Translations under genes and position numbers: made by a program
Notes under the pieces: generated by a model
Databases searched by the model: none
Seen by the model: the letters and a program-made list of their open reading frames with translations, nothing else
Told to the model about the DNA's origin: nothing
Part shown: one piece after another, positions 15,405 to 35,166 of the stretch
How positions within the stretch are numbered: the first letter of the stretch is position 1
Layout: every line of letters begins with the position of its first letter
Origin: Enterobacter sp. 10-1
Lineage (GTDB): Bacteria; Pseudomonadota; Gammaproteobacteria; Enterobacterales; Enterobacteriaceae
Direction: 5' to 3'
Length of the DNA stretch: 64,000 bases
Assembly (NCBI GenBank): GCA_002270295.1
Contig: NISF01000004.1
Coordinates: 310,001 to 374,000, forward strand

Positions 15405-17048
15405 ATGCCACGTATTGAATTAGTAAAACAGGCTCTGCTGGAGCTTGGCATTAAGGATAGCAGCGAGTTATTTTATAACCCCGATTACGACCTGCTGATT
15501 GCCCATGAAACCAGCCCGGAACTCACCGGCGCAGCGCGCGGCGTGATGACCGCATCCGGCGCCGTAGCCGTTGATACCGGGATATTTACCGGACGTTCGC
15601 CGCGCGACAAATATATCGTCAGGGATGACCTGACCCGCGACACCGTCTGGTGGTCCGATGCCGGGCTTGGCCGCAACGACAATAAACCGTTAACGCCGGA
15701 GATTTGGACCAGCCTCAAAACGCGGGTTGCCGGACAGCTGAGCGGCAAAAAGCTGTATGTGGTTGATGCCTGGTGCGGGGCAAGCCCTGATACGCGCCTC
15801 GGCGTGCGCTTTGTCACCGAGGTGGCGTGGCAGGCTCATTTCGTCAAAAATATGTTTATCGTTCCCGACGCTGAGGAGCTGGAGCAGTTCACGCCGGACT
15901 TTGTCGTCCTCAACGGCGCGGGCTGCACCAACGACCAGTGGCAGGAGCAGGGCCTTAACTCTGAAAACTTTGTCGCATTTAACCTGAGCGAGAAAATTCA
16001 GCTCATTGGCGGCACCTGGTACGGCGGAGAGATGAAAAAAGGGCTCTTCTCGGTAATGAACTATCTGCTGCCGCAGCAGGGCATTGCCTCAATGCACTGC
16101 TCGGCTAACCGCGGTGAAGAGGGCGACGTGGCCCTGTTCTTTGGCCTTTCCGGTACCGGCAAAACGACCCTTTCCACCGATCCGCTGCGCCAGCTTATCG
16201 GCGACGATGAGCACGGCTGGGATGACGATGGCGTATTCAATTTTGAAGGCGGCTGCTACGCCAAAACCATCAATCTTGATCCGCAGGCGGAACCGGAAAT
16301 TTATCAGGCGATTCGCCGCAATGCGCTGCTGGAAAATGTGGTAGTCAGAGCTGACGGCACGGTGGATTATGCCGACGGCAGTAAGACCGAAAATACCCGC
16401 GTTTCATATCCGCTGTCGCATATCGAAAATATCGTCAAACCGGTATCTCGTGCCGGCCATCCGGCGCGGGTGATTTTCCTCGCCGCCGACGCTTTCGGCG
16501 TGCTGCCGCCGGTGTCACGTTTGACGACCGAACAGATGCAGTACCACTTCCTGTCGGGCTTCACCTCGAAGCTGGCCGGGACCGAGCGCGGTATCACCCA
16601 GCCGACGCCAACTTTCTCCGCCTGCTACGGCGCGGCGTTCCTGCTGCTACACCCAACGCAGTACGCCAGCGTGCTGGCCGCAAAAATGGCGGAAGCCGGC
16701 GCGGAAGCCTGGCTGGTTAATACCGGCTGGAACGGAGAAGGGAAACGCCTGTCGTTACGCGATACCCGCAGCATTATCAGCGCTATCTTAAACGATACCA
16801 CCGGCCCTCTGCGCCCCGAGACGATCCCGGTCTTTGGCCTGGCAATTCCTGAGAATATCCCGGGCGTTGACGGCGCGCTGCTCGATCCGCGCAGCGGGTG
16901 GAGCTCTGCCGACGGCTGGCAGGAGAAAGCCGAAAGTCTGGCCCAGCTGTTTATCGATAACTTCAGCCAATATAGCGATACCGAGGCCGGCGCGCGCCTG
17001 GCTCTGGCGGGCCCAAAACTTGAACCGTCCGCCGCTACGGCGAACTAA
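15405..17048 (+). CDS. pckA: Phosphoenolpyruvate carboxykinase (ATP), probable second copy
   Basis: This 547-residue enzyme converts oxaloacetate plus ATP to PEP, CO2 and ADP. It aligns along its whole length with E. coli PckA: '[21 protein letters not shown]', partly quoted, '[22 protein letters not shown]', P-loop GLSGTGKTT near residue 247 and the PEPCK-specific [12 protein letters not shown]. The start is ATG 15405 with AGGAG before it; the upstream in-frame ATG at 15387 has no site. E. coli pckA lies beside envZ/ompR, and here the gene is instead paired divergently with a HypT-like LysR gene, so it is probably a paralogue under its own regulator. A terminator follows directly. Confidence 0.93.
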
Positions 17049-18162: not shown

Positions 18163-19713
18163 ATGCTAATGTCAGTCAATAATGAATACCAGAATCTGGC
18201 GGGTGACGCCACTGTCGAAAAATACCTGCCTCAGGGTGGAGTATATGCCTCCCTGTTTGACAAAATTAATTTAACGCCGGTGGCTGAACTCGGTGATTTA
18301 AACGGTTTTGATGATACTACCGTGATGGCGGAAACCTCCGTTGATGCCCGCGTGACCGCCGCGGTGAAAGTATTTATGCAGTGTCTGCAAAAATCCGGGC
18401 ACAAAGTGGAGAAGCTGGATAAGACGATCCTCGACCAGCATATTGCGGAGCTGGATTTTCAGATCGGCCGTCAGCTTGATGAAGTCATGCATCACCCGGA
18501 TTTTCAGCGCACTGAGGGCATCTGGCGCGGGCTTAAATCGCTGGTTGATAAAACCGATTTTCGCCAGAACGTAAAGCTGGAATTACTCGATTTGTCTAAA
18601 GAGGAGCTGCGCCAGGACTTCGAGGACTTTCCGGAAATTATTCAGAGCGGGCTGTATAAGCAGACGTATATCGCGGAATACGACACCCCGGGCGGTGAAC
18701 CTGTTGCCGCGGTTATCTCCGCGTATGAGTTCGATGCATCCGCTCAGGATGTGGCGCTGATGCGTAATATATCAAAAGTCGCCGCCGCCGCGCACATGCC
18801 GTTTATTGGCTCTGCGGGACCGAAGTTCTTTTTAAAGGACAGCATGGAGCAGGTTGCGGCCATCAAAGATATCGGCAACTACTTCGATCGCGCCGAGTAT
18901 ATCAAATGGAAAAACTTCCGCGACACCGACGACTCTCGCTACATCGGTCTGGTGATGCCGCGCGTGCTGGGCCGCCTGCCGTATGGTCCGGATACCGTGC
19001 CGGTGCGCAGCTTCAACTACGTCGAAGAGGTGAAGGGGCCGCAACACGATAAATACCTGTGGACCAACGCCTCCTTCGCCTTTGCCGCAAATATGGTGAA
19101 AAGTTTCATCAACAACGGCTGGTGCGTGCAGATCCGAGGGCCGCAGGCCGGTGGCGCTGTGCAGGATCTGCCCATTCATCTGTATGACCTCGGCACCGGC
19201 AATCAGGTGAAAATTCCGTCAGAGGTGATGCTGCCGGAAACCCGCGAATTTGAGTTCGCCAGTCTCGGCTTTATTCCGCTTTCCTATTACAAGAACCGCG
19301 ATTACGCCTGCTTCTTCTCGGCCAACTCGGCCCAGAAACCGGCGCTGTACGACACTGCGGAAGCTACCGCAAACAGCCGGATTAACTCGCGCCTGCCCTA
19401 CATCTTCCTGCTGTCGCGTATCGCGCATTACCTGAAGCTTATTCAGCGTGAAAACATCGGCACCACCAAGGATCGTCGCCTGCTTGAGCTGGAGCTCAAC
19501 ACCTGGGTGCGTAGCCTGGTGACCGAAATGACCGATCCGGGCGATGAACTTCAGGCTTCACACCCGCTGCGCGATGCAAAAGTGGTAGTTGAGGATATAG
19601 AGGACAATCCGGGCTTCTTCCGCGTGAAGCTGTTTGCCGTGCCGCACTTCCAGGTCGAAGGCATGGACGTCAATCTGTCGCTGGTTTCCCAGATGCCGAA
19701 AGCGAAAGCGTAA
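18163..19713 (+). CDS. tssC: T6SS contractile sheath large subunit TssC (VipB)
   Basis: At 516 residues it has normal length and the typical TssC landmarks: 'ILDQHIAELDFQIGRQLDEVMHHPDFQ' in part, 'EGIWRGLKSLVDKTDF', 'PFIGSAGPKFF', and a C-terminal 'LRDAKVVVEDIEDNPGFFRVKL'-like strand that forms the sheath handshake with TssB. An alternative start two codons in (ATG 18169, MSVNNEYQ) is equally likely. The gene appears intact, in contrast to the decayed 3' end of the cluster. Confidence 0.95.
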   Translation: MLMSVNNEYQNLAGDATVEKYLPQGGVYASLFDKINLTPVAELGDLNGFDDTTVMAETSVDARVTAAVKVFMQCLQKSGHKVEKLDKTILDQHIAELDFQIGRQLDEVMHHPDFQRTEGIWRGLKSLVDKTDFRQNVKLELLDLSKEELRQDFEDFPEIIQSGLYKQTYIAEYDTPGGEPVAAVISAYEFDASAQDVALMRNISKVAAAAHMPFIGSAGPKFFLKDSMEQVAAIKDIGNYFDRAEYIKWKNFRDTDDSRYIGLVMPRVLGRLPYGPDTVPVRSFNYVEEVKGPQHDKYLWTNASFAFAANMVKSFINNGWCVQIRGPQAGGAVQDLPIHLYDLGTGNQVKIPSEVMLPETREFEFASLGFIPLSYYKNRDYACFFSANSAQKPALYDTAEATANSRINSRLPYIFLLSRIAHYLKLIQRENIGTTKDRRLLELELNTWVRSLVTEMTDPGDELQASHPLRDAKVVVEDIEDNPGFFRVKLFAVPHFQVEGMDVNLSLVSQMPKAKA

Positions 19714-21071: not shown

Positions 21072-21757
21072 GTGAGCGTAAACGCGGCGTTGCCGCGTCC
21101 ATCGATATTGATGCGCTGTTGCAGGATACCTGGCTGCAGGTTATCAGCCTGCGTTATGGCCCACAGTTTCAGGAAGGGGAAGGTCGATTACTCTGGGAGC
21201 GCTGTGTCGCTGACGTGGAGCGCGTACAGCGCGCGCTGAAGGAGAGCGAACTGGATGACGCCAGCTGCCAGCATATTCTCACAGCACAATGTGCCCTGCT
21301 TGATGAGGCGGTTAAAGGGCGCGGCATAGAGGATGACGCCTGCGTACAGTGGTATGACATTCCTCTGCAGGGGCACTTCCTCGGCACTATGGATGCCGGC
21401 GATACACTGTGTGACCGTATGCGCGACGTGCTGCGTGAGCCTGCACCTGACGATGCGGTGCTCACCTGCTTTCAGCGCGTCATGATGCTGGGGTTCCTCG
21501 GTGATTTTCGTTCGTTGAACGATCCCGAACGACAGAAACTGATACTGGCACTGAATGACCATACCTCCCCCTTCGGCTATCCACAGACCCATATGGTAAT
21601 GGCTGAAAGCCGGGCAGGGCGGTTTATGGGCGGCTGGCTGTCCTCATGGTCCGTACGCATCGGCATCAGCATTCTGGCGCTCGCTGGCCTGTGGTGGGTA
21701 CTGAGCTACTGGCTCGATCAGATGCTGGCAGCCCTGCTGCCTGGGACCGTGAAATGA
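21068..21757 (+). CDS. tssL: T6SS membrane-complex protein TssL (DotU family, short form)
   Basis: A 229-residue DotU-type protein: an N-terminal helical cytoplasmic domain ('IDALLQDTWLQVISLRYGP', 'CALLDEAVKGRGIEDD', 'MRDVLREPAPDDAVLTCFQRVMMLGFLG', in part) and one C-terminal membrane helix ('IGISILALAGLWWVLSYWL'). It lacks the peptidoglycan-binding OmpA extension that some TssL proteins carry; here that domain is on the next gene. It overlaps both neighbours by 4 bases (ATGA junctions). Confidence 0.93.
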   Translation: MSERKRGVAASIDIDALLQDTWLQVISLRYGPQFQEGEGRLLWERCVADVERVQRALKESELDDASCQHILTAQCALLDEAVKGRGIEDDACVQWYDIPLQGHFLGTMDAGDTLCDRMRDVLREPAPDDAVLTCFQRVMMLGFLGDFRSLNDPERQKLILALNDHTSPFGYPQTHMVMAESRAGRFMGGWLSSWSVRIGISILALAGLWWVLSYWLDQMLAALLPGTVK

Positions 21758-23466
21758 GTCCGGCGCAGCGGCGTGGACTTGCGCTGTGGGCGGCTCTGCT
21801 GACCGCCGTCGTGTGTCTGGGGTTTCTGCCGGCATCCCGACTGGTTTCCATTCTCATGCTGCTGGCTGGGCTGGGGCTAATTGCTGCAACTGGATATACC
21901 ACAAGGCGGCGCTGTGAGCAGGAAGTGCCCCTACGGCTGGATAATCTTCCTGAGGCCACGTATCGCCAGCCGGTAGTGCTGGTCTGCGGCGATCTGCCGC
22001 AGGTTTGGCCTGAGCAGTCTCAGGTGCTTACCGTCACACAGGGATGCTGGATCAGGGTCGACGAGAGTCAGAATCTGGAGCAGGTGGCCCGGCAGCTGTT
22101 ATGGCTGCGTCCGAACTGGGGGCGTCAGCTTTCGGTGATGGTTAGCATCTGTCCGCAGAAGCATGCGGACAGCGAAGCCCTGACCAGCCGTCTGCTGGCC
22201 CTGCGCTGGTTTATCAGCCAGCTGCGTCGCGATACCGGACATACCGTACCGCTGGTTTTGTGCGTCCGGGCCGGCAGCTCGATGATGAATGACATGCTCT
22301 GGCAGGTTGCTATTCCAGGGGAAGGGAGCCGCGTCTGGCGGGAGTCCTCAGCACCCGGTCCCGTTTCTGCATGGGTCACGACCGGTGGCACGGTGGTCAT
22401 GCAGCAGCAGGTGCTGATGAACAGCCTGATGACCTGGTCCCAAAGCCACGTCAACGCGGTGTTTACGGATAAGAATCCGGATATCCCGCAAATTGCGCCC
22501 GCCGCAATGTTATGGGGGATTGGGCCGACCCTCTCTGGCGGTCTCAGTTCTTCCCTCTGGAGCGCCTGGCTGACACGACACACCGCCATGCGGCACGTCG
22601 CGGGCTGGCTACCCGTGGAGGATGGCCCCAGGGGTGCGTCTCCGTTCCCGGACTTTGTCCTTCCGCACTTACCGGAAAGCCAGGGCCTCACGCCCCGCGG
22701 CCGCGCCTGGCGCTGTGCGCTCGGACTTTTCACCCTGGCGTCCGCTGCGGCTCTGCTCAGCAGCGGCTGGAACAATCGTGAGCTGTTGCACCGTCTGAGT
22801 TTCGATATAGCCCATTATTACCGACTTTCCATGGACGACTACGGGCCGAAAGCCGATGCGGTCAAGATCTTACGCCAGGATGCCGCTCAGCTGGACGGCT
22901 GGGCGCGTAACGGCGAACCGCTACGGATGAGGCTTGGCCTGTATCAGGGAGAAAGATTACGCGTGCCGGTGCTGAATGCGATCCGCTCTTATGTGCCGCC
23001 GCCATCGCCGCCAAAACCGAAGGCAAAGTCGGCGCCAATACCGAAAATTATCCGTCTCGACAGCATGTCGCTGTTCGATTCCGGCAGTTTCGCACTGAAA
23101 GCCGGCTCCACCAAAATGCTGGTCAATTCGCTGGTTGGCGTCAAGGCCAAGCCGGGCTGGCTGATCGTGGTCGCAGGGCACACCGATAACACCGGCAATC
23201 CACAACTCAATCAGACGCTGTCCCTGAAACGTGCCGAAGCGGTGCGGAACTGGATGCGGGATACCGGCGACGTGTCGGAAAGCTGTTTTGCGGTGCAGGG
23301 CTACGGCGCAAGCCGCCCAATAGCGACCAACGACACGCCGGAAGGCCGCGCGCTGAACCGCCGTGTCGAAATCAGTCTGGTACCGCAGGCGAACGCCTGC
23401 CAGATACCGGGCACCCCCCAGGCGCCATCGCCGGATGATGGCGCATCACAACACAATGGAGAGTAA
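21754..23466 (+). CDS. OmpA-domain inner-membrane protein of the T6SS cluster
   Basis: About 570 residues from the ATG at 21754, which overlaps the tssL stop; the longer in-frame ATG at 21646 lies inside tssL and is rejected. Two hydrophobic segments at the N-terminus ('LALWAALLTAVVCLGFLPA', 'LVSILMLLAGLGLIAATG') and one near the middle ('ALGLFTLASAAALLSS') anchor it. The C-terminal 130 residues are an OmpA-like peptidoglycan-binding domain ('IVVAGHTDNTGNPQLNQTLS', 'RAEAVRNWM', 'GYGASRPIATNDTPEGRALNRRVEI', in part). It presumably anchors the secretion machine to the wall in partnership with the short TssL. Confidence 0.9.
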   Translation: MSPAQRRGLALWAALLTAVVCLGFLPASRLVSILMLLAGLGLIAATGYTTRRRCEQEVPLRLDNLPEATYRQPVVLVCGDLPQVWPEQSQVLTVTQGCWIRVDESQNLEQVARQLLWLRPNWGRQLSVMVSICPQKHADSEALTSRLLALRWFISQLRRDTGHTVPLVLCVRAGSSMMNDMLWQVAIPGEGSRVWRESSAPGPVSAWVTTGGTVVMQQQVLMNSLMTWSQSHVNAVFTDKNPDIPQIAPAAMLWGIGPTLSGGLSSSLWSAWLTRHTAMRHVAGWLPVEDGPRGASPFPDFVLPHLPESQGLTPRGRAWRCALGLFTLASAAALLSSGWNNRELLHRLSFDIAHYYRLSMDDYGPKADAVKILRQDAAQLDGWARNGEPLRMRLGLYQGERLRVPVLNAIRSYVPPPSPPKPKAKSAPIPKIIRLDSMSLFDSGSFALKAGSTKMLVNSLVGVKAKPGWLIVVAGHTDNTGNPQLNQTLSLKRAEAVRNWMRDTGDVSESCFAVQGYGASRPIATNDTPEGRALNRRVEISLVPQANACQIPGTPQAPSPDDGASQHNGE

Positions 23467-23469
23467 TTC

Positions 23470-23961
23470 ATGGCAATTCCTGTTTATCTTTGGCTGAAAG
23501 ACGACGGCGGTGCGGATATTAAAGGTTCCGTCGACGTGAAAGATCGTGAAGGCAGCATCGAGGTGGTGGCGCAGGAGCACAACCTGTACATCCCGACCGA
23601 CAATAATACCGGCAAGCTGACCGGCACCCGCATTCACACGCCGTTCCTGTTCACCAAGGAGATCGACTCCTCCAGCCCGTATCTGTACAAGGCGGTGACT
23701 ACCGGCCAGACCCTGAAGTCCGCCGAATTCAGGTGGTACAAAATCAACGATGCGGGTCAGGAGGTGGAGTATTTCAACACCAAACTGGAAAACGTCAAGC
23801 TGGTGAAGGTCGCGCCGAAAATGCACGACATCAAGGATCCTGCCTACGAAAAGCATAACCACCTCGAGCAGATTGAGCTGCGTTACGAAAAAATCACCTG
23901 GACCTACAAAGACGGCAACATCATTCATTCCGACTCCTGGAACGAACGCGCCACCGCGTAA
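23470..23961 (+). CDS. hcp: T6SS tube protein Hcp (TssD)
   Basis: The 163-residue protein starts 'MAIPVYLWLKDDGGADIKGS' and contains 'GTRIHTPFLFTKEID', 'SPYLYKAVTTGQTLKSAEFR' and a C-terminal 'IELRYEKITWTYKDGNIIHSDSW', in part, all standard for Hcp. Hexamers stack into the inner tube that is expelled with VgrG at its tip. It follows the OmpA-domain gene with a 3-base gap and is followed by a 176-base spacer before clpV. Intact. Confidence 0.96.
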   Translation: MAIPVYLWLKDDGGADIKGSVDVKDREGSIEVVAQEHNLYIPTDNNTGKLTGTRIHTPFLFTKEIDSSSPYLYKAVTTGQTLKSAEFRWYKINDAGQEVEYFNTKLENVKLVKVAPKMHDIKDPAYEKHNHLEQIELRYEKITWTYKDGNIIHSDSWNERATA

Positions 23962-24137: not shown

Positions 24138-26789
24138 ATGGAAAATCCGGCAATCCTCCTGCGACGTCTCAACCCCTACTGCGCCCGTGCGCTGGAAGGG
24201 GCCGCCTCCCTGTGCCTCACGCGAGCGCATGCTGAAATTCTGCCGGAGCACTGGCTGCTGAAGCTGCTGGAGCAGGGCGAGGGTGACCTCATCGTACTGG
24301 CGCGTCGCTATGAATGGGATATGGACTCCCTGTGGCAGGATTTACTCGGCTGGCTGGATGCGCAGCCGCGCTCGGTACGCAGCCGCCCACAGCTGGCAGA
24401 GAGCACCCAGACCCTGATGCGCGAAGCCTGGATGCGGGCCTCGCTGGCCGGTGAAGAACGCATTCGCGGCGTGCATCTGCTGATGGCGCTGGTCGATAAG
24501 CCTAAGATGGCACGCTGCGACGGCCTGTGGCCGCTGCTGACGCTGGGGCAGAGCCAGCTGCAGCGCCTGCGCCCGCTGCTCGATACGCAGTCCGACGAAC
24601 GCCCGGAAGCCCAGCAGGACGCGGAGCTGGCGCAGAACGGCAGGGAGGTGCAGTTTGTTGGTCGCCCGGTCGGTGCCGGGATAAAAGAAGGTGAGCTTAA
24701 TCCGGCGCTACAAAATGCGTTGGATAAATATACCCTCGACGTCACCGCCAAAGCGCGCGAAGGCGGCATCGATCCGGTATTTGGTCGCGATACGGAAATC
24801 CGCCAGATGGTGGATATTCTCTCCAGACGCCGCAAGAATAACCCGATCCTGGTCGGCGAACCGGGCGTCGGCAAAACGGCCCTGGTGGAAGGCCTGGGGC
24901 TGCGCATCGCCGAAGGTAATGTACCGGAGTCGCTGAAAGCCGTCAGCCTGCACACTCTCGACCTCGGCCTGCTGCAGGCGGGGGCGGGCGTCAAAGGTGA
25001 ATTCGAACAGCGGCTGAAAAACGTCATCGATGCCGTGCAGCAGTCACCGGTACCGATTCTGCTGTTTATCGACGAAGCGCACACTATCATCGGCGCCGGC
25101 AATCAGGCGGGCGGCGCCGATGCGGCCAATCTGCTCAAGCCCGCGCTGGCGAGGGGGGAGCTGCGCACCATCGCCGCCACGACATGGAGCGAATACAAAC
25201 AGTATTTTGAACGCGATGCGGCGCTTGAGCGCCGTTTCCAGATGGTGAAAGTTGATGAGCCGGATGACGAAACCGCCTGCCTGATGCTGCGCGGCCTGAA
25301 ATCCCGCTATGCCGAACATCACAACGTCCACATTACCGATGACGCGGTACGCGCTGCGGTTACCCTGTCGCGGCGCTATCTGACCGGCCGCCAGCTGCCG
25401 GACAAAGCGGTCGATCTGCTGGATACCGCGAGCGCCCGCGTGCGTATGAGCCTCGATATCCTACCGGAGCAATTTACCCGTATCCGCATGAAGCTCACCG
25501 CGCTGGAGATGGAAAAACAGGCGCTGCTGGAGGATATCGCCGTCGGGAATCGCGCTGATGGTGAACGCCTGATCATGATTGAGCAGGAAGAGGTGCGCCT
25601 GATTGTCGAACTTGATGAGCGGGAAACCCGGTACGGCCAGGAGCTCACGCTTACGGAGCAACTGCTGGAGAGCCGTCAGGATATCTCCCGTCAGGGTGAG
25701 ACACGCGAACTGCAGCAGCGGCTGCAGGACATTCAGCAAAGCAGTCCGCTGCTTTCGGTTGATGTGGATGTTCGCACCGTCGCTAACGTGATTGCCGACT
25801 GGACCGGCGTCCCGCTCTCCTCGCTGATGAAGGACGAGCAGACCGAACTGCTGAATCTTGAAGGCGAAATCGGTAAACGCGTGGTGGGGCAGAGTGCGGC
25901 CCTCAACGCCATCGCCCGACGCCTGCGGGCCGCCAAAACCGGGCTGACGTCTGAAAACGGTCCACAGGGCGTATACCTGCTGGTGGGCCCCAGCGGCGTT
26001 GGCAAAACCGAGACCGCGCTAGCGCTGGCGGACGCGCTGTACGGCGGTGAAAAATCCCTTATCACTCTCAATTTGTCCGAATACCAGGAGCCGCACACCG
26101 TTTCCCAACTGAAGGGGTCACCTCCGGGATACGTGGGCTACGGCCAGGGCGGCATTCTGACCGAAGCGGTACGCAAGCGCCCGTACAGCGTGGTGCTGCT
26201 CGATGAGGTGGAGAAAGCCCACCGCGACGTGATGAATCTGTTCTATCAGGTGTTCGACCGCGGCTTTATGCGCGACGGCGAAGGGCGCGAAATCGACTTT
26301 CGCAACACCGTGATTCTGATGACATCTAACCTCGGCGGCGACCCTATCATGCAGCTGCTGGACGAACGGCCGGAAGCTACCGAAGTCGATTTACATGAAC
26401 TGCTGCGCCCCATTTTGCGCGACCATTTCCAGCCAGCGCTGCTGGCCCGCTTTCAGACGGTGATTTATCGCCCTCTGAGCGAGCCTGCAATGCGCACCAT
26501 TGTGGAATTGAAGCTTAAGCAGGTAAGCCAGCGGTTGCAGCGCCACTACGGCCTGGAAACTCATATCGGCGAGAGCCTGTATGACGCGCTTACCGCGGCC
26601 TGCCTGCTGCCGGATACCGGTGCGCGCAACATTGACAGCCTGCTCAATCAGCAGATTTTGCCGGTGCTGAGCCAGCAACTGCTGGCTCATATGGCGGCGA
26701 AGCAGCAGCCAACATCGCTGACGTTAGGCTGGAGTGAGGATGGCGGTATTGCACTGGAGTTCAGCGGAGCCAGAGGAGAGGCATCATGA
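24138..26789 (+). CDS. clpV: T6SS sheath-recycling AAA+ ATPase ClpV (TssH)
   Basis: 883 residues with the Clp N-domain repeat region (1-160), Walker A GEPGVGKTAL near residue 240, Walker B 'ILLFIDEAHTIIGAG', a middle coiled-coil domain (about 430-550), and a second Walker A GPSGVGKTETAL near residue 617 with 'SVVLLDEVEKAH'. ClpV disassembles contracted TssBC sheath for reuse. The length is typical. Its stop overlaps the vgrG start by 4 bases (ATGA). Intact. Confidence 0.95.
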   Translation: MENPAILLRRLNPYCARALEGAASLCLTRAHAEILPEHWLLKLLEQGEGDLIVLARRYEWDMDSLWQDLLGWLDAQPRSVRSRPQLAESTQTLMREAWMRASLAGEERIRGVHLLMALVDKPKMARCDGLWPLLTLGQSQLQRLRPLLDTQSDERPEAQQDAELAQNGREVQFVGRPVGAGIKEGELNPALQNALDKYTLDVTAKAREGGIDPVFGRDTEIRQMVDILSRRRKNNPILVGEPGVGKTALVEGLGLRIAEGNVPESLKAVSLHTLDLGLLQAGAGVKGEFEQRLKNVIDAVQQSPVPILLFIDEAHTIIGAGNQAGGADAANLLKPALARGELRTIAATTWSEYKQYFERDAALERRFQMVKVDEPDDETACLMLRGLKSRYAEHHNVHITDDAVRAAVTLSRRYLTGRQLPDKAVDLLDTASARVRMSLDILPEQFTRIRMKLTALEMEKQALLEDIAVGNRADGERLIMIEQEEVRLIVELDERETRYGQELTLTEQLLESRQDISRQGETRELQQRLQDIQQSSPLLSVDVDVRTVANVIADWTGVPLSSLMKDEQTELLNLEGEIGKRVVGQSAALNAIARRLRAAKTGLTSENGPQGVYLLVGPSGVGKTETALALADALYGGEKSLITLNLSEYQEPHTVSQLKGSPPGYVGYGQGGILTEAVRKRPYSVVLLDEVEKAHRDVMNLFYQVFDRGFMRDGEGREIDFRNTVILMTSNLGGDPIMQLLDERPEATEVDLHELLRPILRDHFQPALLARFQTVIYRPLSEPAMRTIVELKLKQVSQRLQRHYGLETHIGESLYDALTAACLLPDTGARNIDSLLNQQILPVLSQQLLAHMAAKQQPTSLTLGWSEDGGIALEFSGARGEAS

Positions 26790-29275
26790 GTACAAATCCA
26801 AAAATCAGATTCAGCCATAACCACCACCAGCTGGCGATTAAAGGATGTAAGCCCGCGCTGGACGTGCTGGCCTTTGAAGGCGAGGAAGCCCTGAGCCAGC
26901 CGTTCAGCTACCGCATTGAGTTCACAAGCGCCGAGCATGCCATCAGCAAAGAGATGATGCTGATTAAGGCCGGTTCTCTGACGCTGCAGGCCCCGGTGGA
27001 TCAGGGTTTTGGTATTAAGCTGCAGCAGCCAGTGCGGGTGATTCAGGGCGTGGTCAGCGGCTTCGAACGGCTCGGTACCTCGGCGGATGAAACCCACTAC
27101 GCGTTGACGCTCCAGCCGCGTCTGGCGCTGCTCTCTCGTTCACGCCAGAACGCCATCTACCAGGACATGTCGGTCCCGCAGATCGTCGAAAAAATCCTGC
27201 GTGAACGGCATAACTTCAAAGGCCAGGACTTTCTGTTTTCACTGAGTAAAGAGTACCCGCGCCGGGAGCAGGTGATGCAGTACGGCGAAGATGACCTGCA
27301 CTTTATCACCCGCCTGCTGGGCGAGGTGGGGATCTGGTTTCGCTTTACCGCCGACACGCGCCTGAACATCGACGTGGTGGCGTTTTACGACAGCCAGCAG
27401 GGCTACGAGAAAGGCCTGACGTTGCCATCGGTACCGCTGTCGGGCCAGCATTCGAAAGGGGTGGACTCGGTCTGGGAGATGGAATGTCATCACAACGTGG
27501 TGCAGCGGCAGGTCAGCACCCGCGACTACAACTACCGTCAGGCTAATGAGGATATGAATGCGCAGGTGGATGTCACCAGCGGGGATACGACCACCTACGG
27601 CGATGCGTATCACTATGCTGATAACTACCTGACGCAAGGTAGCACGTTCGACCGCAGCCCGGACCCGGAGTCCGGGGCGTTTTACGCCCGTATCCGCCAT
27701 GAACGCTATCTGAACGGCCAGACGCAGGCCCGGGCTATTACCAGCTGCCCGACGCTCGCACCGGGCCAGGTGCTGAAGGTCACCGGTGGCTATGAAGTGG
27801 CGGAGACGTTCAGCCAGGGCGTGGTGATAACCGCGATCGCCAGCTTCGCCCGTCGCGATCGGGATTTTGAGCTGCACTTCAGCGGTATCCCGGACAGCAG
27901 TGATTTTGGTTTTCGCCCGGAGCCCGGCACGCGGCCGGTGATGGCGGGCACGCTGCCCGCACGCGTAACCAGCACCAGTGAAAATGATATCTACGGCCAT
28001 ATCGATAAAGATGGCCGCTATCGGGTGAATATGCTGTTCGACCGCGATAGCTGGGAGACCGGGTTTGAAAGCCTGTGGGTGCGTCAGTCCCGCCCGTACG
28101 CAGGCGACACTTACGGCCTGCACCTGCCGCTGCTGGCGGGCACCGAAGTGGCAATTGGATTTGAGGACGGCAACCCGGACCGGCCGTATATCTCCGGCGT
28201 GCTGCACGACTCGACCCACGGCGACCACGTCACCATTCGCAACTACAAACGCAACGTCCTGCGGACGCCTGCGAATAATAAAATCCGCCTCGACGATGAG
28301 CGCGGAAAAGAGCATATCAAGGTCTCGACGGAGTACGGCGGAAAGAGCCAGCTGAATCTCGGCCATCTTGTCGACAGCGAGAAGCAACAGCGCGGGGAAG
28401 GCTTTGAGCTACGCACGGATTCATGGGGCGCCATCCGGGCGCAGAAAGGGATATTTATCAGCGCCGACGGCCAGGCGAAGGCGCAAGGGCAGGTGCTGGA
28501 GATGGGGGCGGCGCTGGCAAGGCTTTCCGTCGCCTTAGTGGAAATGCAGTCTCTGGCGGCCAGCGCGCAGCAGGCTCATGCGCTGGCGGCGGATGTCGGT
28601 CGTCAGCAAAAACTCCTGAAGCAGAAAATAGAACAACTGCATGAAGAGGTTATCTTAGGCAGTGCGCCAGAAGGAATGGCACTGGTGAGCGGCGAAGATA
28701 TGCAGCTATCAGCCAGCGATAATCTGACGCTGACAGCAGGTAAGCAACTGGATGTAGGGGCGCAAAAAGACTTCACTCTGGCCGCGGGTAAGCAACTCAG
28801 CCTGTACAGCCGTGAAGGGGCAAAACTGTTCAGCTCTCAAAATGATATTGATATTCAGGCTCAGGGCGGAGATATCACCACCTGGTCCACACAGGACACA
28901 CATATTTCGAGTGGCAAGAATCTGGTCGTTACAGCCCAGGATGAACTGACGCTGATATGCGGCGGTGGTTATATCAAAATCAAAGGCGGGAATGTTGAGA
29001 TTGGTGGGCCTGGCAAACTGCTTATAAAGAATGCGGGAATAAAGAAGGCCGGCTCCGGCAGTATGCAGGGTGTGATGAAGTCGTTTGAGCCATCAACGTT
29101 TGATGAGAAATTTGTTATTACTCATCCCGTATCAGGAAAGCCTCTCGCAAATCAGAACTATGACATTTATATGCCTGATGGGAGCATGTTGTCCGGAATA
29201 ACAGACAGTTTAGGGCATTCATCACTCATATCATCAAAAGCCGTTGATGGGCTAAAAATAGTTTTAAAAAAATAA
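26786..29275 (+). CDS. vgrG: T6SS spike protein VgrG (TssI) with C-terminal transthyretin-like extension
   Basis: The 829-residue protein has the gp27/gp5-like VgrG core (residues about 1-480: 'FRFTADTRLNIDVVAFYDS', 'SLWVRQSRPYAGDTYGLHLPL', 'GTEVAIGFEDGNPDRPYISG', in part). A repetitive beta-helical DUF2345-type needle follows (about 520-740, with repeats like 'LTAGKQLDVGAQKDFTLAAGKQL'). The last 58 residues from about 772 ('FDEKFVITHPVSGKPLANQN', 'YDIYMPDGSMLSG') look like a transthyretin-like domain. In enteroaggregative E. coli a similar VgrG tail recruits the lipase Tle1, so this tail probably binds the lipase encoded two genes on. AT content rises toward the 3' end. Confidence 0.93.
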   Translation: MSTNPKIRFSHNHHQLAIKGCKPALDVLAFEGEEALSQPFSYRIEFTSAEHAISKEMMLIKAGSLTLQAPVDQGFGIKLQQPVRVIQGVVSGFERLGTSADETHYALTLQPRLALLSRSRQNAIYQDMSVPQIVEKILRERHNFKGQDFLFSLSKEYPRREQVMQYGEDDLHFITRLLGEVGIWFRFTADTRLNIDVVAFYDSQQGYEKGLTLPSVPLSGQHSKGVDSVWEMECHHNVVQRQVSTRDYNYRQANEDMNAQVDVTSGDTTTYGDAYHYADNYLTQGSTFDRSPDPESGAFYARIRHERYLNGQTQARAITSCPTLAPGQVLKVTGGYEVAETFSQGVVITAIASFARRDRDFELHFSGIPDSSDFGFRPEPGTRPVMAGTLPARVTSTSENDIYGHIDKDGRYRVNMLFDRDSWETGFESLWVRQSRPYAGDTYGLHLPLLAGTEVAIGFEDGNPDRPYISGVLHDSTHGDHVTIRNYKRNVLRTPANNKIRLDDERGKEHIKVSTEYGGKSQLNLGHLVDSEKQQRGEGFELRTDSWGAIRAQKGIFISADGQAKAQGQVLEMGAALARLSVALVEMQSLAASAQQAHALAADVGRQQKLLKQKIEQLHEEVILGSAPEGMALVSGEDMQLSASDNLTLTAGKQLDVGAQKDFTLAAGKQLSLYSREGAKLFSSQNDIDIQAQGGDITTWSTQDTHISSGKNLVVTAQDELTLICGGGYIKIKGGNVEIGGPGKLLIKNAGIKKAGSGSMQGVMKSFEPSTFDEKFVITHPVSGKPLANQNYDIYMPDGSMLSGITDSLGHSSLISSKAVDGLKIVLKK

Positions 29276-29291: not shown

Positions 29292-30073
29292 ATGATAAAT
29301 CTGATTATGCGGTTCTGCTTTATATATGTTGTTTTTGTTCTGAGTGGTTGTGTAGCTGGCCCTTATGGCGGGGGTGTTGCCTTGGTTAATCCTTTTTCTG
29401 CGATGAATGATACGCAGAAAGAGCCGGGCAGCCTGAGGTTTATGGTCCGCCGCAGATAATTTATCGCATTGATAAAGAACGTTACTTTACGCTGGAAGAG
29501 TATACCCGCTGCGAAAACGGGAAAACGTTTTATAACAACAAGGCTAAAGGAATTCATACACAGATAGCACCCTCATCAGGTTATTTATTTAAAGGACGGC
29601 TGTTCTGGCTATCAAACCGGGATGACTATTTAGCCTTTCCAATCACAGCCAATGATAATAAGGCAGCATGTAAGGGATCGGATAAAGGGTGCCTGAATGT
29701 TGTTTCGGTGACAACCGATGGTGGGAAAACCGTGCACTCAGTGACTTACGGATCAAATACACAGGATCCTAATGGTGACACAAAAGACTACGATATGCTG
29801 GTGACTAATGACAGTTTTTATCTGATTTATTATCGGGGAAAGGGAAGAGTATACCCTGTTGTAGATAGATGGGATCTTGATAAAGAAAACTGGCTGGGTG
29901 TGGTTAAATCTGAGGATGAATATAGTTTACTCAGGCCTGGAGAAGAAAAACCTGTTGGGGGCTTTTTTAAAATAGATATGTCAAAGTTTTACCCAAAAAA
30001 AGGAGAGAGTGAAATGCAGTGTGATCGGCAGTTGGAACCAGTACAACCCACAGGAAGGATTTCAGATGAATAA
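29292..30073 (+). pseudogene. Frameshifted lipoprotein gene, probable immunity protein of the lipase effector
   Basis: The ATG at 29292 opens a lipoprotein: a hydrophobic leader ending in the lipobox LSGC at residues 17-20, then 'VAGPYGGGVALVNPFSAMND'. The frame stops at 29457. A second frame takes over from about 29440: 'YGPPQIIYRIDKERYFTLEE', 'GYLFKGRLFWLSNRDDYLAF', 'VTTDGGKTVHSVTYGSN', 'FKIDMSKFYPKKGESEMQC', ending at 30073. Joining the frames needs one extra base in the T-run near 29431-29434 (RF-YGPP in place of RFMVRR). The position between vgrG and the lipase, with an 8-base overlap onto the lipase, is the usual one for periplasmic Tli immunity lipoproteins. Identity as immunity is inference. 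Confidence 0.72.
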
Positions 30074-31559
30074 TCAAACATCTCCCACACGGAAAGTCGA
30101 TGTTCAGATGACAGATAACGGGACGCCGTTTGCTCATTCAATAACCTCGCATAAAAATATTCATGTGAATGCTGAAGTTCAGCCGCCATTACAATTTCCT
30201 GGATTAGTTATCTTTGTACATGGAGTTAACTCGGAAGGTGAGTGGTATAATGACGCTGAAAAATCATTATGTGAGGGATTAAATCAGCGGTTGGGTCTTA
30301 ATGGTGAGCATGTTCTTGTAGAAAATCAATATGCCGAAGGCTACTGGGAACCCTGTGATAAAAATAGTCCTGAATGGAGAGGATGTTATAGTGATATGTA
30401 TGATGAGAAGAAACAGAAATGGGTTCCTCCGCCCAGGGAAATAAAAGAAGAAGGCCGTTCTCCCGTCATTCGGTTTTACTGGGGCTATCGTGCCGCTGAT
30501 AATGAAACCGATAAATATGCCATTCCGCTTAAAAATAAGCAGGGAGATAATTATTACGACCTGACGCCTGAACAACGAAAAAGCAAAGGCCCTTTTTACT
30601 GGGGAGGTGGCCCTTTCCAGAACGGTTGTAATCAGTTAGTCAGTCTTTGGAGCGAAAAAGGGTTTGATAAGTGGCCGTCAGCGCTGGGCATTCCGGTGCC
30701 ATTCAGCACTCAGCTATTGAACGGAGAACGTGACAGGCTTCTGACAGCAGCACCTCCACGTCATTATTATGCTCATGCAGCAGGCCGTCTGGCAAAGCTC
30801 ATTAAAACCATTCGTGATAAACATCCCGAGGATACAGTGACGGTGCTGTCCCACAGTCAGGGAACGATGGTTGCCCTGGCCGCTGCTGCAATCGAAGCGC
30901 CGGATGCACTGTTTGTGATGAATTCGCCCTATGCGCTGGATAATGAAATGACAACCTATATTTCGTATCCCATGAATGAAATCATCAGCAAAGAGGCCAG
31001 AGAAGCGACATTTGCCGATATTGTAAAAAAAGTGGCTGAAAATAAAACACGTTTACAAAAGCAAGGGTGTGAAAGATTACTTGCAGGAGCCAGCAGTGAT
31101 GGTGAAAGTTGGTCACCGGCCGGGAAAACGCACGGTGGTGTGCCAGAGCGTGATAACCATGGAACAACCTGGATTTACTGCAACCCTCACGACCGGGTAA
31201 TGGGCTCTGCCCCTTTACGCAGTATTGGATGGCAGGGACTGCCCAATACGGAAACCAGCCGTTTTACAGAACCCCATCCCCTGTTTAAGGCAGCGGGAGA
31301 CACGCTGTACGTGCGTATGCTCGGGCGGAACACGCCATGCGGCGTTGAACCCAGCACGCAGACCCACTTTAGCGATCTTGATGATGGGAAACCATTCTGG
31401 GACAGCACCACAACCCTAATGCAGAAGATGACCTGGCCCGCGCCGGTAAAAGAGCAAAAGCTGACGATTAATGCGCCTCTTGTGCCTGACCCCTTGTCTG
31501 CTGAAGAATTAAAGGATTTTGACCAGGATTATCGCAGCAGGGATATGGAGGTTGGTTGA
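30066..31559 (+). CDS. T6SS lipase effector (alpha/beta hydrolase, Tle3-like)
   Basis: 497 residues starting at ATG 30066, with AGGAAGG seven bases upstream; the earlier in-frame ATG at 30009 lies within the lipoprotein gene. An alpha/beta hydrolase core is visible: 'GLVIFVHGVNSEGEWYNDAE' (oxyanion strand with HG), then 'VTVLSHSQGTMVALA' with the GxSxG nucleophile Ser264. A later 'NPHDRVMGSAPLRSIGW' supplies a likely catalytic Asp, and 'THFSDLDDGKPFW' holds candidate His residues. The start 'NNQTSPTRKVDVQMTDNG' has no signal peptide, fitting delivery on the VgrG tail. Family assignment to Tle3 (DUF3274-type) is from memory of motifs and moderately sure; lipase activity is inferred. Confidence 0.78.
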   Translation: MNNQTSPTRKVDVQMTDNGTPFAHSITSHKNIHVNAEVQPPLQFPGLVIFVHGVNSEGEWYNDAEKSLCEGLNQRLGLNGEHVLVENQYAEGYWEPCDKNSPEWRGCYSDMYDEKKQKWVPPPREIKEEGRSPVIRFYWGYRAADNETDKYAIPLKNKQGDNYYDLTPEQRKSKGPFYWGGGPFQNGCNQLVSLWSEKGFDKWPSALGIPVPFSTQLLNGERDRLLTAAPPRHYYAHAAGRLAKLIKTIRDKHPEDTVTVLSHSQGTMVALAAAAIEAPDALFVMNSPYALDNEMTTYISYPMNEIISKEAREATFADIVKKVAENKTRLQKQGCERLLAGASSDGESWSPAGKTHGGVPERDNHGTTWIYCNPHDRVMGSAPLRSIGWQGLPNTETSRFTEPHPLFKAAGDTLYVRMLGRNTPCGVEPSTQTHFSDLDDGKPFWDSTTTLMQKMTWPAPVKEQKLTINAPLVPDPLSAEELKDFDQDYRSRDMEVG

Positions 31560-32373
31560 TGGGTTGGTCTCTTCCGGAGGTGCCTGAAAAAGAGCAGGCA
31601 CCATCCTGGTCATCGTGGGTTTGCCTGTTGATTATTTTTCTCGGTCTTTTCATTGGGTTACTTGTTGCTGTACTGAAATCACCGACGACAGGGTTACCTT
31701 CATTAAGCAGTGGGGCCTGGCTACCACTGACGGCCTGGACATTTGCGGGCATTTCGGCAACCATCGCGGTTTACAGCTTCTGGTGGGAAACGCTGGCAAT
31801 CCGTGTCTGGAACTGGAATGAGTGGTGCCGGAGCATGCGTCTGATGTGGCGCAGGCGCGCGCATCAACATCTTGTCATTCTCAGCCATGCTTTCATTGCT
31901 GCAGATCCGGGATTGCTGTCTCGTCTTGCACATACACAGGAACTGGCGGTGTCATTGATTATGACAGTGCATGCGTTCGGTATGGCGGTCTTGCTGGCTG
32001 GGCAATGATTGGGGCTGCGGCTGAGATGGCTGCTTACGGCCCTGCCTGCCAGTGGCTTTTTCTTGAAGGTGAGACTGATGCCTGGGCAGTGACGCTCGGA
32101 AACGCCGCCCCCGCAGTCGGGCACGATCATTTCGTTATTCAGCCACCCTTTCCCGGGGGCTCTGTTCTGATGGCATTGCTGCTGAATGTCGGGCTGTACA
32201 GCCTGATGATCCATTACTTCCCATCAACTGCATTCTCCTGGTTGGGGGTAACTCTTCTTCTGCTGTCACTGATAGTGACATTGCCTGGGCTGGCCATTTT
32301 GCTGAAACGAATTACAGCCCGTCTTCAGCGCCCAGGATTTATCAGGGTTGCACGACACTCCGGAAAGGAATAA
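31559..32373 (+). pseudogene. Membrane protein of the effector cassette, disrupted by an internal deletion
   Basis: The ATG at 31559 overlaps the lipase stop by one base. The first frame gives two membrane helices ('WVCLLIIFLGLFIGLLVAVL', 'LTAWTFAGISATIAVYSFWW') and a basic loop to 'FIAADPGLLSRLAHT', then runs out at 32008 in nonsense. A different frame from about 31930 continues with sensible protein: 'GGVIDYDSACVRYGGLAGWA', 'AAEMAAYGPACQWLFLEGE', and two more helices ('LNVGLYSLMIHYFPSTAFSW', 'LGVTLLLLSLIVTLPGLAIL') to 32373. The two parts look like the ends of one longer T6SS-linked protein whose soluble middle has been lost, with a frame mismatch at the join near 31925-31940. Confidence 0.68.
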
Positions 32374-32378
32374 CCGGT

Positions 32379-33602
32379 ATGAAAAAGGTTTCAAAGCCCC
32401 TGGGAGCTGGATTACTCATTGTGGCAGTTCTGCTGATGGTGCTCTTTGTTCTTGCACAGACAACGCAGTTGCCCTCTGACAATAATGACGATAATTTCTG
32501 GTATGTGCTGTCTGGTTTTATCACTCTCACTGCCGCGCTGTGCACCATGGTCTTTTTTACGTTGTTCAGGCAGCAAAATCCTTCTCCCGTTACGCCTGAT
32601 GGCGAAAATAATCACGCTCAAGAAAAATCGCCGGATCATTATGATTTTACTGCACTAAGCAAATATCTCAGAAGACGTTACTCGTCGTTCTGGCGGCGCA
32701 AGGTTCGTCTGCTGCTGGTCACCGGCGATGAGGCGGCAATCGAACTGCTGGTTCCAGGCCTGCAGGAAAACCAGTGGCTTGAAGGCAACCGTACCGTTCT
32801 GATTTACGGCGGCAGTCTGACTGCTGAGCCCGATAAGGAAAAATACACCGCGCTGCGTAAACTGCGTCGCGGGCGCCCACTGGACGGGATTGTCCGGATC
32901 ATGCCTCAGTCGCTTAATCTGACCCCGCAAATCAGTGACAGCGACCTTCGCGGGCTGGAAAAAATCAGTGAATTGCTGCATTACTCAGCACCTGTCTGGC
33001 TGTGGCAGTTGTGTGACAGCAAATGGGCGCAGACAACGCGCACTGAGCAGGCGGTCGGGGCAACGTTCCCGCTGCGTGCAAAAGCTGATGATATTGCCCG
33101 TCAGCTCAAGCTGATGCTGTCGTCCCTGCGAACGCAGGGAGTGAGCCAGATCGCGGAAAACAACAGTCATGACTTCCTGCTGCGCCTGGGCCAGCACTTT
33201 AAAGACGGTGGCATCGCTCGCTGGGCTCAGCAACTGCTGCCATGGCTGGCCGCCTCCCAGCAACGCGTTCCGCTGCGTGGCCTGATGTTCAGTCTGCCAG
33301 GGTATAAACCTGTCGATACGTCAGAGGAAACAGCCGGTGCTGAGACATTTATCCCTGAGTCACAGCGCCATGCGCTGACCCTGCCGTTAACCTGGCAGGG
33401 CATTGTGGATGACTGTACCCGCGTGCGTGGCCGTCGTGTCGGTATGGCATGGGGAGCTTTCTGCGCTGCCGCCGGACTGGAATCTTCGCGCCGGCCAGGA
33501 TCTGATAAACCAGGCTCACGCGCTGTGGCCGGGGCTTTCCGGGGCCGAACAGTTGGGCACTCAGTGGCAGCAAAAGCTTGCCCTGAACGGGACTCCGGAT
33601 GA
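32379..33602 (+). pseudogene. tssM: Truncated tssM (icmF/vasK-like): N-terminal part only
   Basis: The frame begins with two membrane helices ('LGAGLLIVAVLLMVLFVLA', 'FWYVLSGFITLTAALCTMVF') and a cytoplasmic domain ('FWRRKVRLLLVTGDEAAIE', 'VLIYGGSLTAEPDKEKY', 'IARWAQQLLPWLAASQQRVP') as in Klebsiella-type TssM. The nucleotide-binding loop is the degenerate VTGDEAAIE rather than GxxxxGKT. Coherence ends after 'CTRVRGRRVGMAW' near 33450; the remaining 50 residues are an out-of-frame reading of another gene. A full TssM exceeds 1,100 residues and has a large periplasmic domain, so about two thirds are missing. Confidence 0.75.
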
Positions 33603-33888
33603 TTCGCTCGCAGGCTGGCATCAGGGCATGCTTAAACTTCAGAGCCTGAGCGAACAGCTCAACGCCCTGGATGGGCAGAAGGGGAAATACATGACCGTCA
33701 GCGAGCTGAAATCGCAGGTGTTTGCCGCCATTCAGGCATTTAATAAATCCGTGCCGGTGGAGGAGCAGCTCCGTCAGATATCGGAGCGGCAAGAGCCAGG
33801 GATGATCCCGCAGGCGCAGAAGCTTCAGGTGGAGCAGCACTTACAGCAGCTCATCACCCGATACTCGGCGCTAACCAACCGGGAATAG
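33455..33888 (+). pseudogene. C-terminal remnant of a vasL/tssA-like (ImpA-related) gene
   Basis: From about 33455 a new frame reads 'LSALPPDWNLRAGQDLINQA', 'WQQKLALNGTPDDSLAGWHQ', 'GQKGKYMTVSELKSQVFAA' and ends 'LITRYSALTNRE' at the stop 33886-33888. This resembles the C-terminal domain of VasL/ImpA-related proteins, which lie at the far end of such T6SS clusters. It has no start of its own and is fused out of frame behind the truncated tssM. A terminator about 100 bases on probably ended the original operon. Confidence 0.65.
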
Positions 33889-33988
33889 CACTCCTGGCCG
33901 GGCAGTTTGTTTGCACTGCAACCGCGCTGAATAGTCATGTGAAAAAGCGCCTAAGGGCATTTTTTCGCGCTGCGGCAGCGTCAGATAC

Positions 33989-34018: not shown

Positions 34019-34074
34019 TGCTGTCTTCCAGCTGTCATGAGATTCCGTGAAGCCCCATGAGCCAACGGCAACTC

Positions 34075-35166
34075 TTAGACGTTGAACAGGAAGTTCATTA
34101 CGTCGCCATCTTTAACGATGTAGTCTTTGCCTTCGGCGCGCATCTTACCGGCTTCTTTCGCGCCTTGTTCGCCTTTGTAAGCGATAAAGTCTTCATAGGC
34201 GATAGTCTGAGCGCGGATAAAGCCTTTTTCGAAATCGGTGTGAATTTTACCCGCCGCCTGCGGCGCGGTCGCGCCGACAGGGATCGTCCACGCGCGGACT
34301 TCTTTAACGCCGGCGGTGAAGTAGGTTTGCAGGTTCAGCAGCTCGTAGCCTGCGCGGATAACTCGGTTCAGGCCCGGCTCTTCCAGGCCCAGTTCGGCCA
34401 TAAACTCATCGCGGTCAGCGTCGTCAAGTTCCGCAATATCGGATTCAACGGCGGCGCAGACGGCAACCACCACTGAGCCTTCGGCGGCAGCGATTTCGCG
34501 GACTTTATCGAGATACGGGTTGTTCTCGAAGCCGTCTTCGTTGACGTTAGCGATGTACATGGTTGGCTTCAGGGTCAGGAAGCTCAGGTATTTGATGGCG
34601 GCTTTATCTTCGTCCGTCAGCGCCAGCGCGCGCAGCATGCCGGCGTTTTCGAGCTGCGGCAGACATTTTTCCAGCGCGACCAGTTCAGCTTTCGCGTCTT
34701 TATCGCCGCCTTTTGCCTTCTTCTGTACGCGATGAATTGCGCGTTCGCAGGTATCAAGATCGGACAGCGCCAGCTCGGTGTTGATAACGTCGATATCGTC
34801 AGCCGGGTCCACTTTGTTGTTCACGTGGATGATGTTGTCGTTTTCAAAGCAGCGAACAACGTGGCCGATAGCTTCGGTTTCGCGAATGTTGGTCAGGAAC
34901 TGGTTACCCAGGCCTTCGCCCTTGGATGCGCCTTTTACCAGGCCCGCGATGTCGACGAATTCCATGGTAGTCGGCAGGATGCGCTGTGGTTTAACGATTT
35001 CGGCCAGCTTATCCAGACGCGGATCGGGCATCGGTACGACACCGGTGTTCGGCTCAATAGTACAGAAGGGGAAGTTGGCCGCTTCAATACCCGCTTTGGT
35101 GAGCGCATTGAACAGGGTGGATTTGCCGACGTTGGGCAAACCGACGATACCGCATTTGAATCCCAT
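34075..35166 (-). CDS. ychF: Ribosome-binding ATPase YchF (EngD)
   Basis: The 363-residue Obg-family protein has the G1 motif [10 protein letters not shown] near residue 8. Its G4 motif is NVNED rather than NKxD, which explains the family's preference for ATP over GTP. The TGS domain is at the C-terminus ('[20 protein letters not shown]', '[13 protein letters not shown]', '[17 protein letters not shown]'). It associates with ribosomes and has roles in translation and oxidative stress response. It follows pth on the minus strand, as in E. coli. Confidence 0.97.

What the first reader, a model, noticed from the sequence alone, without database searches (positions are those of the whole stretch)
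32379..33900. T6SS cluster ends in a deletion junction joining tssM to a vasL/tssA-like 3' end
The tssM-type frame makes sense up to 'VRGRRVGMAW' near 33450. Within a few bases a different frame starts that reads as the C-terminus of a VasL/ImpA-related protein and stops at 33888. Everything expected in between is gone: the tssM periplasmic domain and whatever genes lay between. None of tssA, tssE, tssF, tssG and tssJ occurs anywhere in the window. The sheath, tube, ClpV and VgrG genes are intact, so the system would be unable to fire unless a second cluster supplies the missing parts. The sheath and Hcp genes may then be retained for another reason.
Basis: partly seen in the sequence, partly recalled or inferred. 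Interest (0 to 1): 0.75.

Follow-up and report, generated by a model that had tools for sequence, protein, structure and literature searches.

The report
T6SS cluster broken by 9-kb deletion
This bacterium carries the broken remains of a protein-injection machine: one deletion removed about a third of its genes, a second copy elsewhere is broken too, and nothing shows that the leftover parts do something new.

Summary
At 33453 the type VI secretion (T6SS) gene tssM is cut after codon 358, and the last 143 codons of a VasL gene follow in another frame. Raoultella terrigena NBRC 14941, the closest relative with that part of the locus, has the same site (PEPCK-like gene - T6SS - ychF); there tssM, tssA, tssF, tssG, tssJ, tssE and vasL are open full-length frames. 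One 9,051-bp deletion, ends sharing a single base, accounts for everything missing. The rest of the genome does not make up for it: no TssM, TssF or TssA match was found. A second T6SS locus on another contig has also collapsed (partial tssB, partial tssG, tssJ, broken tssE). Two more lesions lie in the window: a 616-bp deletion in the gene before tssM and a frameshift in the Tle3 immunity gene. R. terrigena has lost a largely complementary part of the same locus (tssC 3' end to vgrG). The retained genes show no clear relaxed selection, but neither does the severed tssM fragment, so the deletion is too young to say anything about retention. Partly deleted T6SS clusters are already known, for example in Enterobacter bugandensis. 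This is a recent pseudo-cluster, well resolved but ordinary.

The parts
15387..17048 (+). ATP-dependent PEP carboxykinase-like gene, left neighbour of the T6SS in this genome and in R. terrigena
   Evidence: PEPCK_ATP E 6e-200; 98% identical in L025/L070
17628..18125 (+). tssB (VipA), full length
   Evidence: PF05591; full-length match to R. planticola
18163..19713 (+). tssC (VipB sheath), full length
   Evidence: PF05943 + PF18945; only VipB match in the genome
19731..21071 (+). tssK, full length
   Evidence: PF05936; only TssK match in the genome
21068..21757 (+). tssL (DotU)
   Evidence: PF09850 E 1.3e-25
21646..23466 (+). TagL-like gene with OmpA domain
   Evidence: PF00691; the name TagL rests on PMC12469244 and recall
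23470..23961 (+). hcp (tssD)
   Evidence: PF05638
24138..26789 (+). clpV (tssH)
   Evidence: AAA_2, AAA_lid_9, ClpB_D2-small; 86% identical to the R. planticola gene at the same place
26786..29275 (+). vgrG (tssI)
   Evidence: Phage_GPD, T6SS_Vgr, DUF2345
29292..30073 (+). Tle3 immunity (Tli3-type) gene, frame broken in its first quarter
   Evidence: Tli3 match in the downstream frame (E 4.3e-5, below the curated cut-off); frames read by eye
30009..31559 (+). tle3-type phospholipase effector gene, frame open
   Evidence: PF24322 E 3.6e-107
31556..32373 (+). gene of unknown family before tssM, broken by an internal deletion (616 bp relative to L019) around 31939-31942
   Evidence: Lonsdalea quercina (L019) has it as one 492-aa frame; no Pfam match; breakpoint
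32379..33453 (+). tssM remnant: first 358 codons plus one base (codon 357 is residue 381 of 1157 in R. terrigena)
   Evidence: the Pfam TssM domains of L025 begin at residue 433
33453..33454 (.). deletion junction; ungapped, base 33453 fits both sides; 9,051 bp missing relative to R. terrigena
33453..33888 (+). vasL remnant: last 143 codons (counterpart of residues 324-466 of 466) and stop
   Evidence: PF12486 E 2.5e-36; 87% identical to L025 19857-20285
34075..35166 (-). ychF, right neighbour, also in R. terrigena
   Evidence: the name ychF is recalled

Best explanation
An inherited T6SS locus between a PEPCK-like gene and ychF lost about 9.05 kb in one illegitimate recombination event (the ends share a single base when aligned without gaps). 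The event removed the C-terminal two thirds of tssM, all of tssA, tssF, tssG, tssJ and tssE, and most of vasL. Shown: the junction, the gene order of that stretch in the sister species, and no TssM, TssF or TssA match elsewhere in the genome. Inferred: without TssM-TssJ there is no membrane complex, and without TssF-TssG-TssE no complete baseplate, so Hcp cannot be fired. The remaining genes are a young pseudo-cluster, and further lesions nearby (the gene before tssM, the Tle3 immunity gene) fit ongoing decay. Sister R. terrigena is decaying at the same locus through a different deletion.
For: Same flanks and same gene order in R. terrigena L025. Sharp breakpoints with identity dropping to chance on the far side. 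Of 392 family genomes, 26 have any match to the 111 bases around the junction, and only the window's own covers all of it. No PF06761, TssF or ImpA_N match in the own genome, while the E. coli control and, for ImpA_N, 4 of 4 compared relatives ring. One VipB and one TssK match, both in the window. TssG, TssJ and TssE occur only as a collapsed second remnant, apart from one GPW_gp25 match that lies among phage tail genes. Contig 553,695 bases long; no N in 31000-34200.
Against: No reads were seen, and only one genome per species is held, so a misassembly or a single-isolate event cannot be excluded. The genome is in 37 contigs. The eight retained genes are open and show dN/dS close to that of intact loci, as a working system would.
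Confidence: 0.92

Rival explanations
1. Assembly artefact: the true genome has the intact locus and the assembler skipped 9 kb.
For: No reads available; draft assembly of 37 contigs.
Against: The two ends share only one base, so there is no repeat to collapse. No TssF, TssM or ImpA_N match on any contig, so the missing 9 kb is not merely misplaced. Independent lesions lie nearby. Completeness is listed as 100.
Confidence: 0.05
2. The retained sheath, Hcp, ClpV, TssK, TssL and VgrG genes are kept for a purpose other than contact-dependent firing.
For: All eight genes from tssB to vgrG are open; dN/dS 0.05-0.22 against R. planticola; tssB and tssC(1-407) against R. terrigena 0.075 and 0.085.
Against: The severed tssM fragment shows dN/dS about the same as its R. 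terrigena homologue against four outgroups (0.15-0.20 against 0.14-0.19), so the values reflect the time before the deletion. Sister R. terrigena has itself lost tssC 3' end to vgrG at this locus, so these genes are not kept throughout the lineage.
Confidence: 0.03
3. The remaining genes work with parts supplied in trans by another cluster in the genome.
For: A second locus on contig C31 has a TssJ gene and pieces of TssG and TssE.
Against: No TssM, TssF or TssA match on any contig; the C31 TssG lacks the counterpart of its first 65 residues (and its Pfam match contains a TGA), and TssE is split over two frames.
Confidence: 0.02

Closest known systems
Incomplete T6SS i2-iii cluster of Enterobacter bugandensis E104107 (PMC10763514, passages seen)
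   Same: Keeps tssB, C, D, H, K, L and lacks baseplate genes tssE, F, G and membrane genes tssJ, M; authors infer a deletion event; a further tssBC remnant elsewhere in the genome.
   Different: It keeps tssA and lacks vgrG, and that genome has a complete primary T6SS; here vgrG is kept, tssA is lost, and no complete T6SS was found in the genome.
T6SS locus of Raoultella terrigena NBRC 14941 at the same site (L025, L070, L071)
   Same: Same flanking genes, same order; 91-99% protein identity at the PEPCK-like gene, tssB, tssC(1-407), tssM fragment and ychF, 87% at the vasL piece.
   Different: Keeps tssM to vasL but has lost the tssC 3' end, tssK, tssL, tagL, hcp, clpV and vgrG at this locus: a largely complementary deletion.
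T6SS of Raoultella planticola ATCC 33531 (L037, L072, L073)
   Same: Same gene order tssB-C-K-L-tagL-hcp-clpV-vgrG ... tssM-A-F-G-J-E-vasL, each matched over most or all of its length.
   Different: Appears complete, and not beside ychF (ychF is on another contig).
T6SS kleb1 and kleb2 loci of Klebsiella (PMC12469244, abstract and one section read)
   Same: i2-type TssB; loci that are not complete are common (860 and 1,472 of 4,434 genomes by that paper; these equal all genomes without a complete locus, so they seem to include absence).
   Different: The section gives counts, not this deletion; Raoultella is not named in it.

Membership tests
T6SS gene cluster | Sheath genes tssB and tssC | tested here: met
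   PF05591, PF05943, PF18945, full length
T6SS gene cluster | Tube, spike, recycling ATPase (hcp, vgrG, clpV) | tested here: met
   clpV named by synteny and 86% identity to R. planticola
T6SS gene cluster | Membrane complex TssJ-TssL-TssM | tested here: not met
   TssL present; TssM cut after codon 358 and no PF06761 in the genome; TssJ only in the C31 remnant
T6SS gene cluster | Baseplate TssE-TssF-TssG-TssK | tested here: not met
   TssK present; no TssF; TssG and TssE only as broken pieces on C31
T6SS gene cluster | TssA cap | tested here: not met
   no ImpA_N match in the genome; 2 each in 4 of 4 compared relatives
T6SS subtype i2 | TssB in the i2 clade | not tested
   no tree built; i2 is what PMC12469244 reports for Klebsiella TssB in general
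Partly deleted T6SS cluster (pseudo-cluster) | Same site and order as a fuller locus, with a contiguous block missing and gene ends at both edges | tested here: met

The most novel reading that the evidence does not exclude
The TssB-TssC sheath, Hcp, ClpV, TssK, TssL and VgrG set is maintained as a particle without complete baseplate or membrane complex, with its own job in this lineage. A milder reading also stands: both T6SS loci are being lost by independent deletions in this species and in R. terrigena, so loss itself may be selected.
Probability: 0.04. Interest if true: 0.75.

Novelty: new member of a known kind. Interest (0 to 1): 0.25.

Why it matters
It indicates that this genome has no working T6SS although it carries full-length sheath, tube, ClpV and VgrG genes. 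Annotation by marker genes such as hcp, clpV or dotU would call it T6SS-positive. Two sister species losing largely complementary parts of one locus, and different parts of a second locus, makes a small natural case for repeated T6SS loss.

Tried and rejected
Assembly artefact: considered; no repeat at the ends and the missing genes match on no contig, so unlikely but not closed without reads. Trans-supply by a second cluster: found a second locus, but it is itself collapsed. The second GPW_gp25 (TssE-like) match at C32:270747 lies among phage baseplate and tail genes by PHROGs, so I do not count it as TssE. Overlap at the junction: I first took it as two bases (GC at 33456-33457); on rechecking the ungapped alignment ends the tssM side at 33453 in three relatives, and only base 33453 fits both sides. 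Size of the deletion in the gene before tssM: first taken as 613 bp, 616 bp on rechecking. Selection tests: polarised changes on the window branch were tssB 13 silent and 4 replacing, tssC(1-407) 12 and 8, tssM fragment 9 and 9; R. terrigena branch 6 and 2, 14 and 3, 15.8 and 16.2; not polarised 10 and 3, 31 and 7, 14.9 and 7.1. tssC has more replacing changes on the window branch than on the other (8 against 3), which could hint at relaxation; numbers are too small to say and no statistical test was made. Other isolates of the species could not be looked up: the held set has one genome per species, and the named scan may leave out near records.

Full report
What is there. The window carries, on the + strand, tssB, tssC, tssK, tssL (DotU), an OmpA-domain gene (TagL-like), hcp, clpV, vgrG, a Tli3-type immunity gene, a Tle3-type phospholipase gene, a gene of unknown family, the first 358 codons of tssM and the last 143 codons of vasL; then ychF follows on the other strand. 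The eight genes from tssB to vgrG match R. planticola over 165/165, 516/516, 446/446, 229/229, 606/606, 163/163, 880/883 and, for vgrG, 748/829 residues.

The junction. The tssM fragment is recognised by relatives rather than by Pfam: IcmF-related_N scores only E 0.092, but the full-length TssM proteins of L025 and L019 also show no hit to that N-terminal model. The fragment is 50-91% identical (best segment) to the 51 loci returned. Of the 17 places besides its own that one search found in the genus, 14 have open frames of 1017-1175 aa; the other three (117, 161 and 186 aa) all lie in one genome, G010. Against R. terrigena, without gaps, the tssM side matches 97 of 100 columns at 33354-33453 and 25 of 100 after; the vasL side matches 80 of 100 at 33453-33552 and 30 of 100 before. 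L019 and L073 also stop matching at 33453 (87 and 83 of 100 before, 28 and 26 of 100 after). The tssM frame runs out of register to 33602 and the vasL frame is a different one, so no fusion protein is encoded.

One deletion explains everything missing. R. terrigena NBRC 14941 (L025; taken as the same contig as G018:C6 because length and sequence agree) has the same flanks: the PEPCK-like gene at 98% and ychF at 99% identity. Its order after tssM is tssA (VasJ/ImpA_N), tssF, tssG, tssJ, tssE, vasL, each confirmed by Pfam, then ychF. Window position 33453 aligns to G018:C6:173365 on the tssM side and to 182416 on the vasL side, a difference of 9,051 bp. So about two thirds of TssM, TssA, TssF, TssG, TssJ, TssE and VasL residues 1-323 went in one step.

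Nothing replaces the parts. In the own genome (6,095,309 bases, 37 contigs, completeness listed 100) PF06761 gives 0 matches, TssF 0, ImpA_N 0, VipB 1 and TssK 1, both in the window. In the 4 compared relatives ImpA_N gives 2 matches each. TssG and TssJ each give one match, and TssE one of its two, on contig C31. That stretch (L076) holds tssB residues 1-95, tssG from residue 66, a TssJ frame of 193 aa and a TssE split over two frames. The other TssE-family match, C32:270747, sits among PHROGs baseplate and tail genes.

Other lesions. The gene before tssM is one 492-aa frame in Lonsdalea quercina L019. In the window it has lost 616 bp relative to L019 around 31939-31942: the left side matches 94 of 103 columns and the right side 91 of 100. 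The Tle3 immunity gene changes frame in its first quarter (read by eye), and only its downstream part matches Tli3, below the curated cut-off (24.3 against 27 bits). The Tle3 frame is open. An open toxin with a broken immunity gene fits a toxin that is no longer delivered (inference).

The sister species. R. terrigena's tssC stops matching at residue 407, and a lipase effector gene and a Tli4 immunity gene follow, the first 62 bases on; tssK, tssL, tagL, hcp, clpV and vgrG have no match in its locus. Its only TssK match is a 132-position piece on another contig; its 5 Hcp matches lie on other contigs. That TssK piece lies in a second remnant (L104): tssB 1-95, tssK 1-125, a scrap of tssE. L104 positions 1-1116 match the C31 remnant of the window's genome at 90.9%. 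So the two species share an old tssB-tssK joint in the second locus and appear to have lost different parts of it since, as they have of the first.

How widespread. Of 20 genomes of the genus (own included), 12 have a VipB match. I read 20 kb on the T6SS side of ychF in 18 of 20 and the other two as above. T6SS genes are there in 3 of the 18 (L090, L094, L097; TssM 44-45%, TssF 59% identical to R. terrigena, so a different cluster) and in the window's genome and R. terrigena. The 111 bases around the junction match 26 of 392 family genomes, drawn evenly from a larger group; only the window's own covers all of them. The other 25 match mostly up to base 54 (window 33453); one (G218) runs from 9 to 72 at 83%, past the junction, and one (G104) matches 64-100 only; neither was followed up. 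One genome per species is held, so other isolates of this species were not tested.

Selection. Against R. planticola dN/dS is tssB 0.069, tssC 0.068, tssK 0.089, tssL 0.107, tagL 0.221, hcp 0.052, clpV 0.095, vgrG(1-748) 0.186. Against R. terrigena: tssB 0.075, tssC(1-407) 0.085, tssM(92-357) 0.254, vasL piece 0.122; the neighbours PEPCK-like 0.043, ychF 0.028, pth 0.015, SulP-like 0.038. The tssM value is not a clear sign of decay in the window: against four outgroups the fragment gives 0.181, 0.201, 0.150, 0.168 for the window and 0.167, 0.189, 0.160, 0.136 for R. terrigena. Among five loci compared, mean dN/dS of tssL is higher in the window (0.114 against 0.077-0.095); tssK, tagL, clpV, vgrG and (four loci) tssC lie within the range of the others, hcp just below it. 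On polarised changes tssC(1-407) has 8 replacing of 20 on the window branch and 3 of 17 on the R. terrigena branch, a weak hint of relaxation, untested. The deletion is therefore recent on this scale, and intactness of the retained genes is no evidence for a second function.

Known cases. Enterobacter bugandensis E104107 has a cluster with tssABCDHKL but no tssEFG, vgrG or tssJM, with a deletion inferred, and tssBC remnants elsewhere (PMC10763514, passages seen). A Klebsiella survey counts 860 and 1,472 of 4,434 genomes without a complete kleb1 or kleb2 locus (PMC12469244, abstract and one section). S. flexneri is said to keep only T6SS remnants (PMC10924462, passage seen). PMC11096500 (passages seen) reports T6SS genes in R. 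scottia, names Hcp, ClpV and DotU, and gives ANI 94.1 between R. scottia and R. terrigena; the window's long blocks are 91.5-96.4% identical to R. terrigena. This is a lead to the species, not an identification: the window's genome (6.10 Mb) is larger than the 4.39-5.93 Mbp reported there. Six paper searches were made. The two that name Raoultella with tssM or R. terrigena with T6SS listed 3 papers each; of these six I saw passages of two, and no description of this deletion in those passages.

Verdict. Observation confirmed; deletion well supported and loss of function a strong inference from missing parts; the idea of retention for another reason has no support. A new, well-resolved member of a known kind.

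Noticed in passing
G000:C31:191909-194221 (L076 1909-4221) and L104 648-1996: A second T6SS locus is collapsed in both the window's genome and R. terrigena: they share a partial tssB joined to the start of tssK and then differ in later losses.
   Followed up: partly
L070 11893-11955 (R. terrigena, G018:C6): R. terrigena's tssC is cut at residue 407 and is followed directly by a lipase effector and Tli4 immunity gene; the tssK-vgrG block has no match in the locus.
   Followed up: partly
window 29292-30073: The immunity gene of the Tle3-type effector is frameshifted while the effector frame stays open.
   Followed up: partly
window 31556-32373: The gene before tssM (unknown family, one 492-aa frame in Lonsdalea quercina) carries its own internal deletion; this stretch and the tssM start are 85-87% identical in DNA to L. 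quercina, against 80% of the core genes to R. planticola and 93% of the later tssM part to R. terrigena.
   Followed up: partly
window 15387-17048: A PEPCK-like gene sits beside the T6SS; an about 91% identical copy (protein) lies within 20 kb of ychF in 3 of 18 other genomes of the genus, without T6SS matches in that stretch (L089, L091, L092).
   Followed up: no
G000:C35:85229, C22:433235, C6:462: Of 6 Hcp-family matches in the genome three contain internal stops, so orphan hcp genes may be decaying too.
   Followed up: no
G000:C32:268446-274928 (L077): Phage baseplate and tail genes (four tested with PHROGs; the order looks P2-like from recall), likely a prophage about 35 kb left of the window.
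   Followed up: partly
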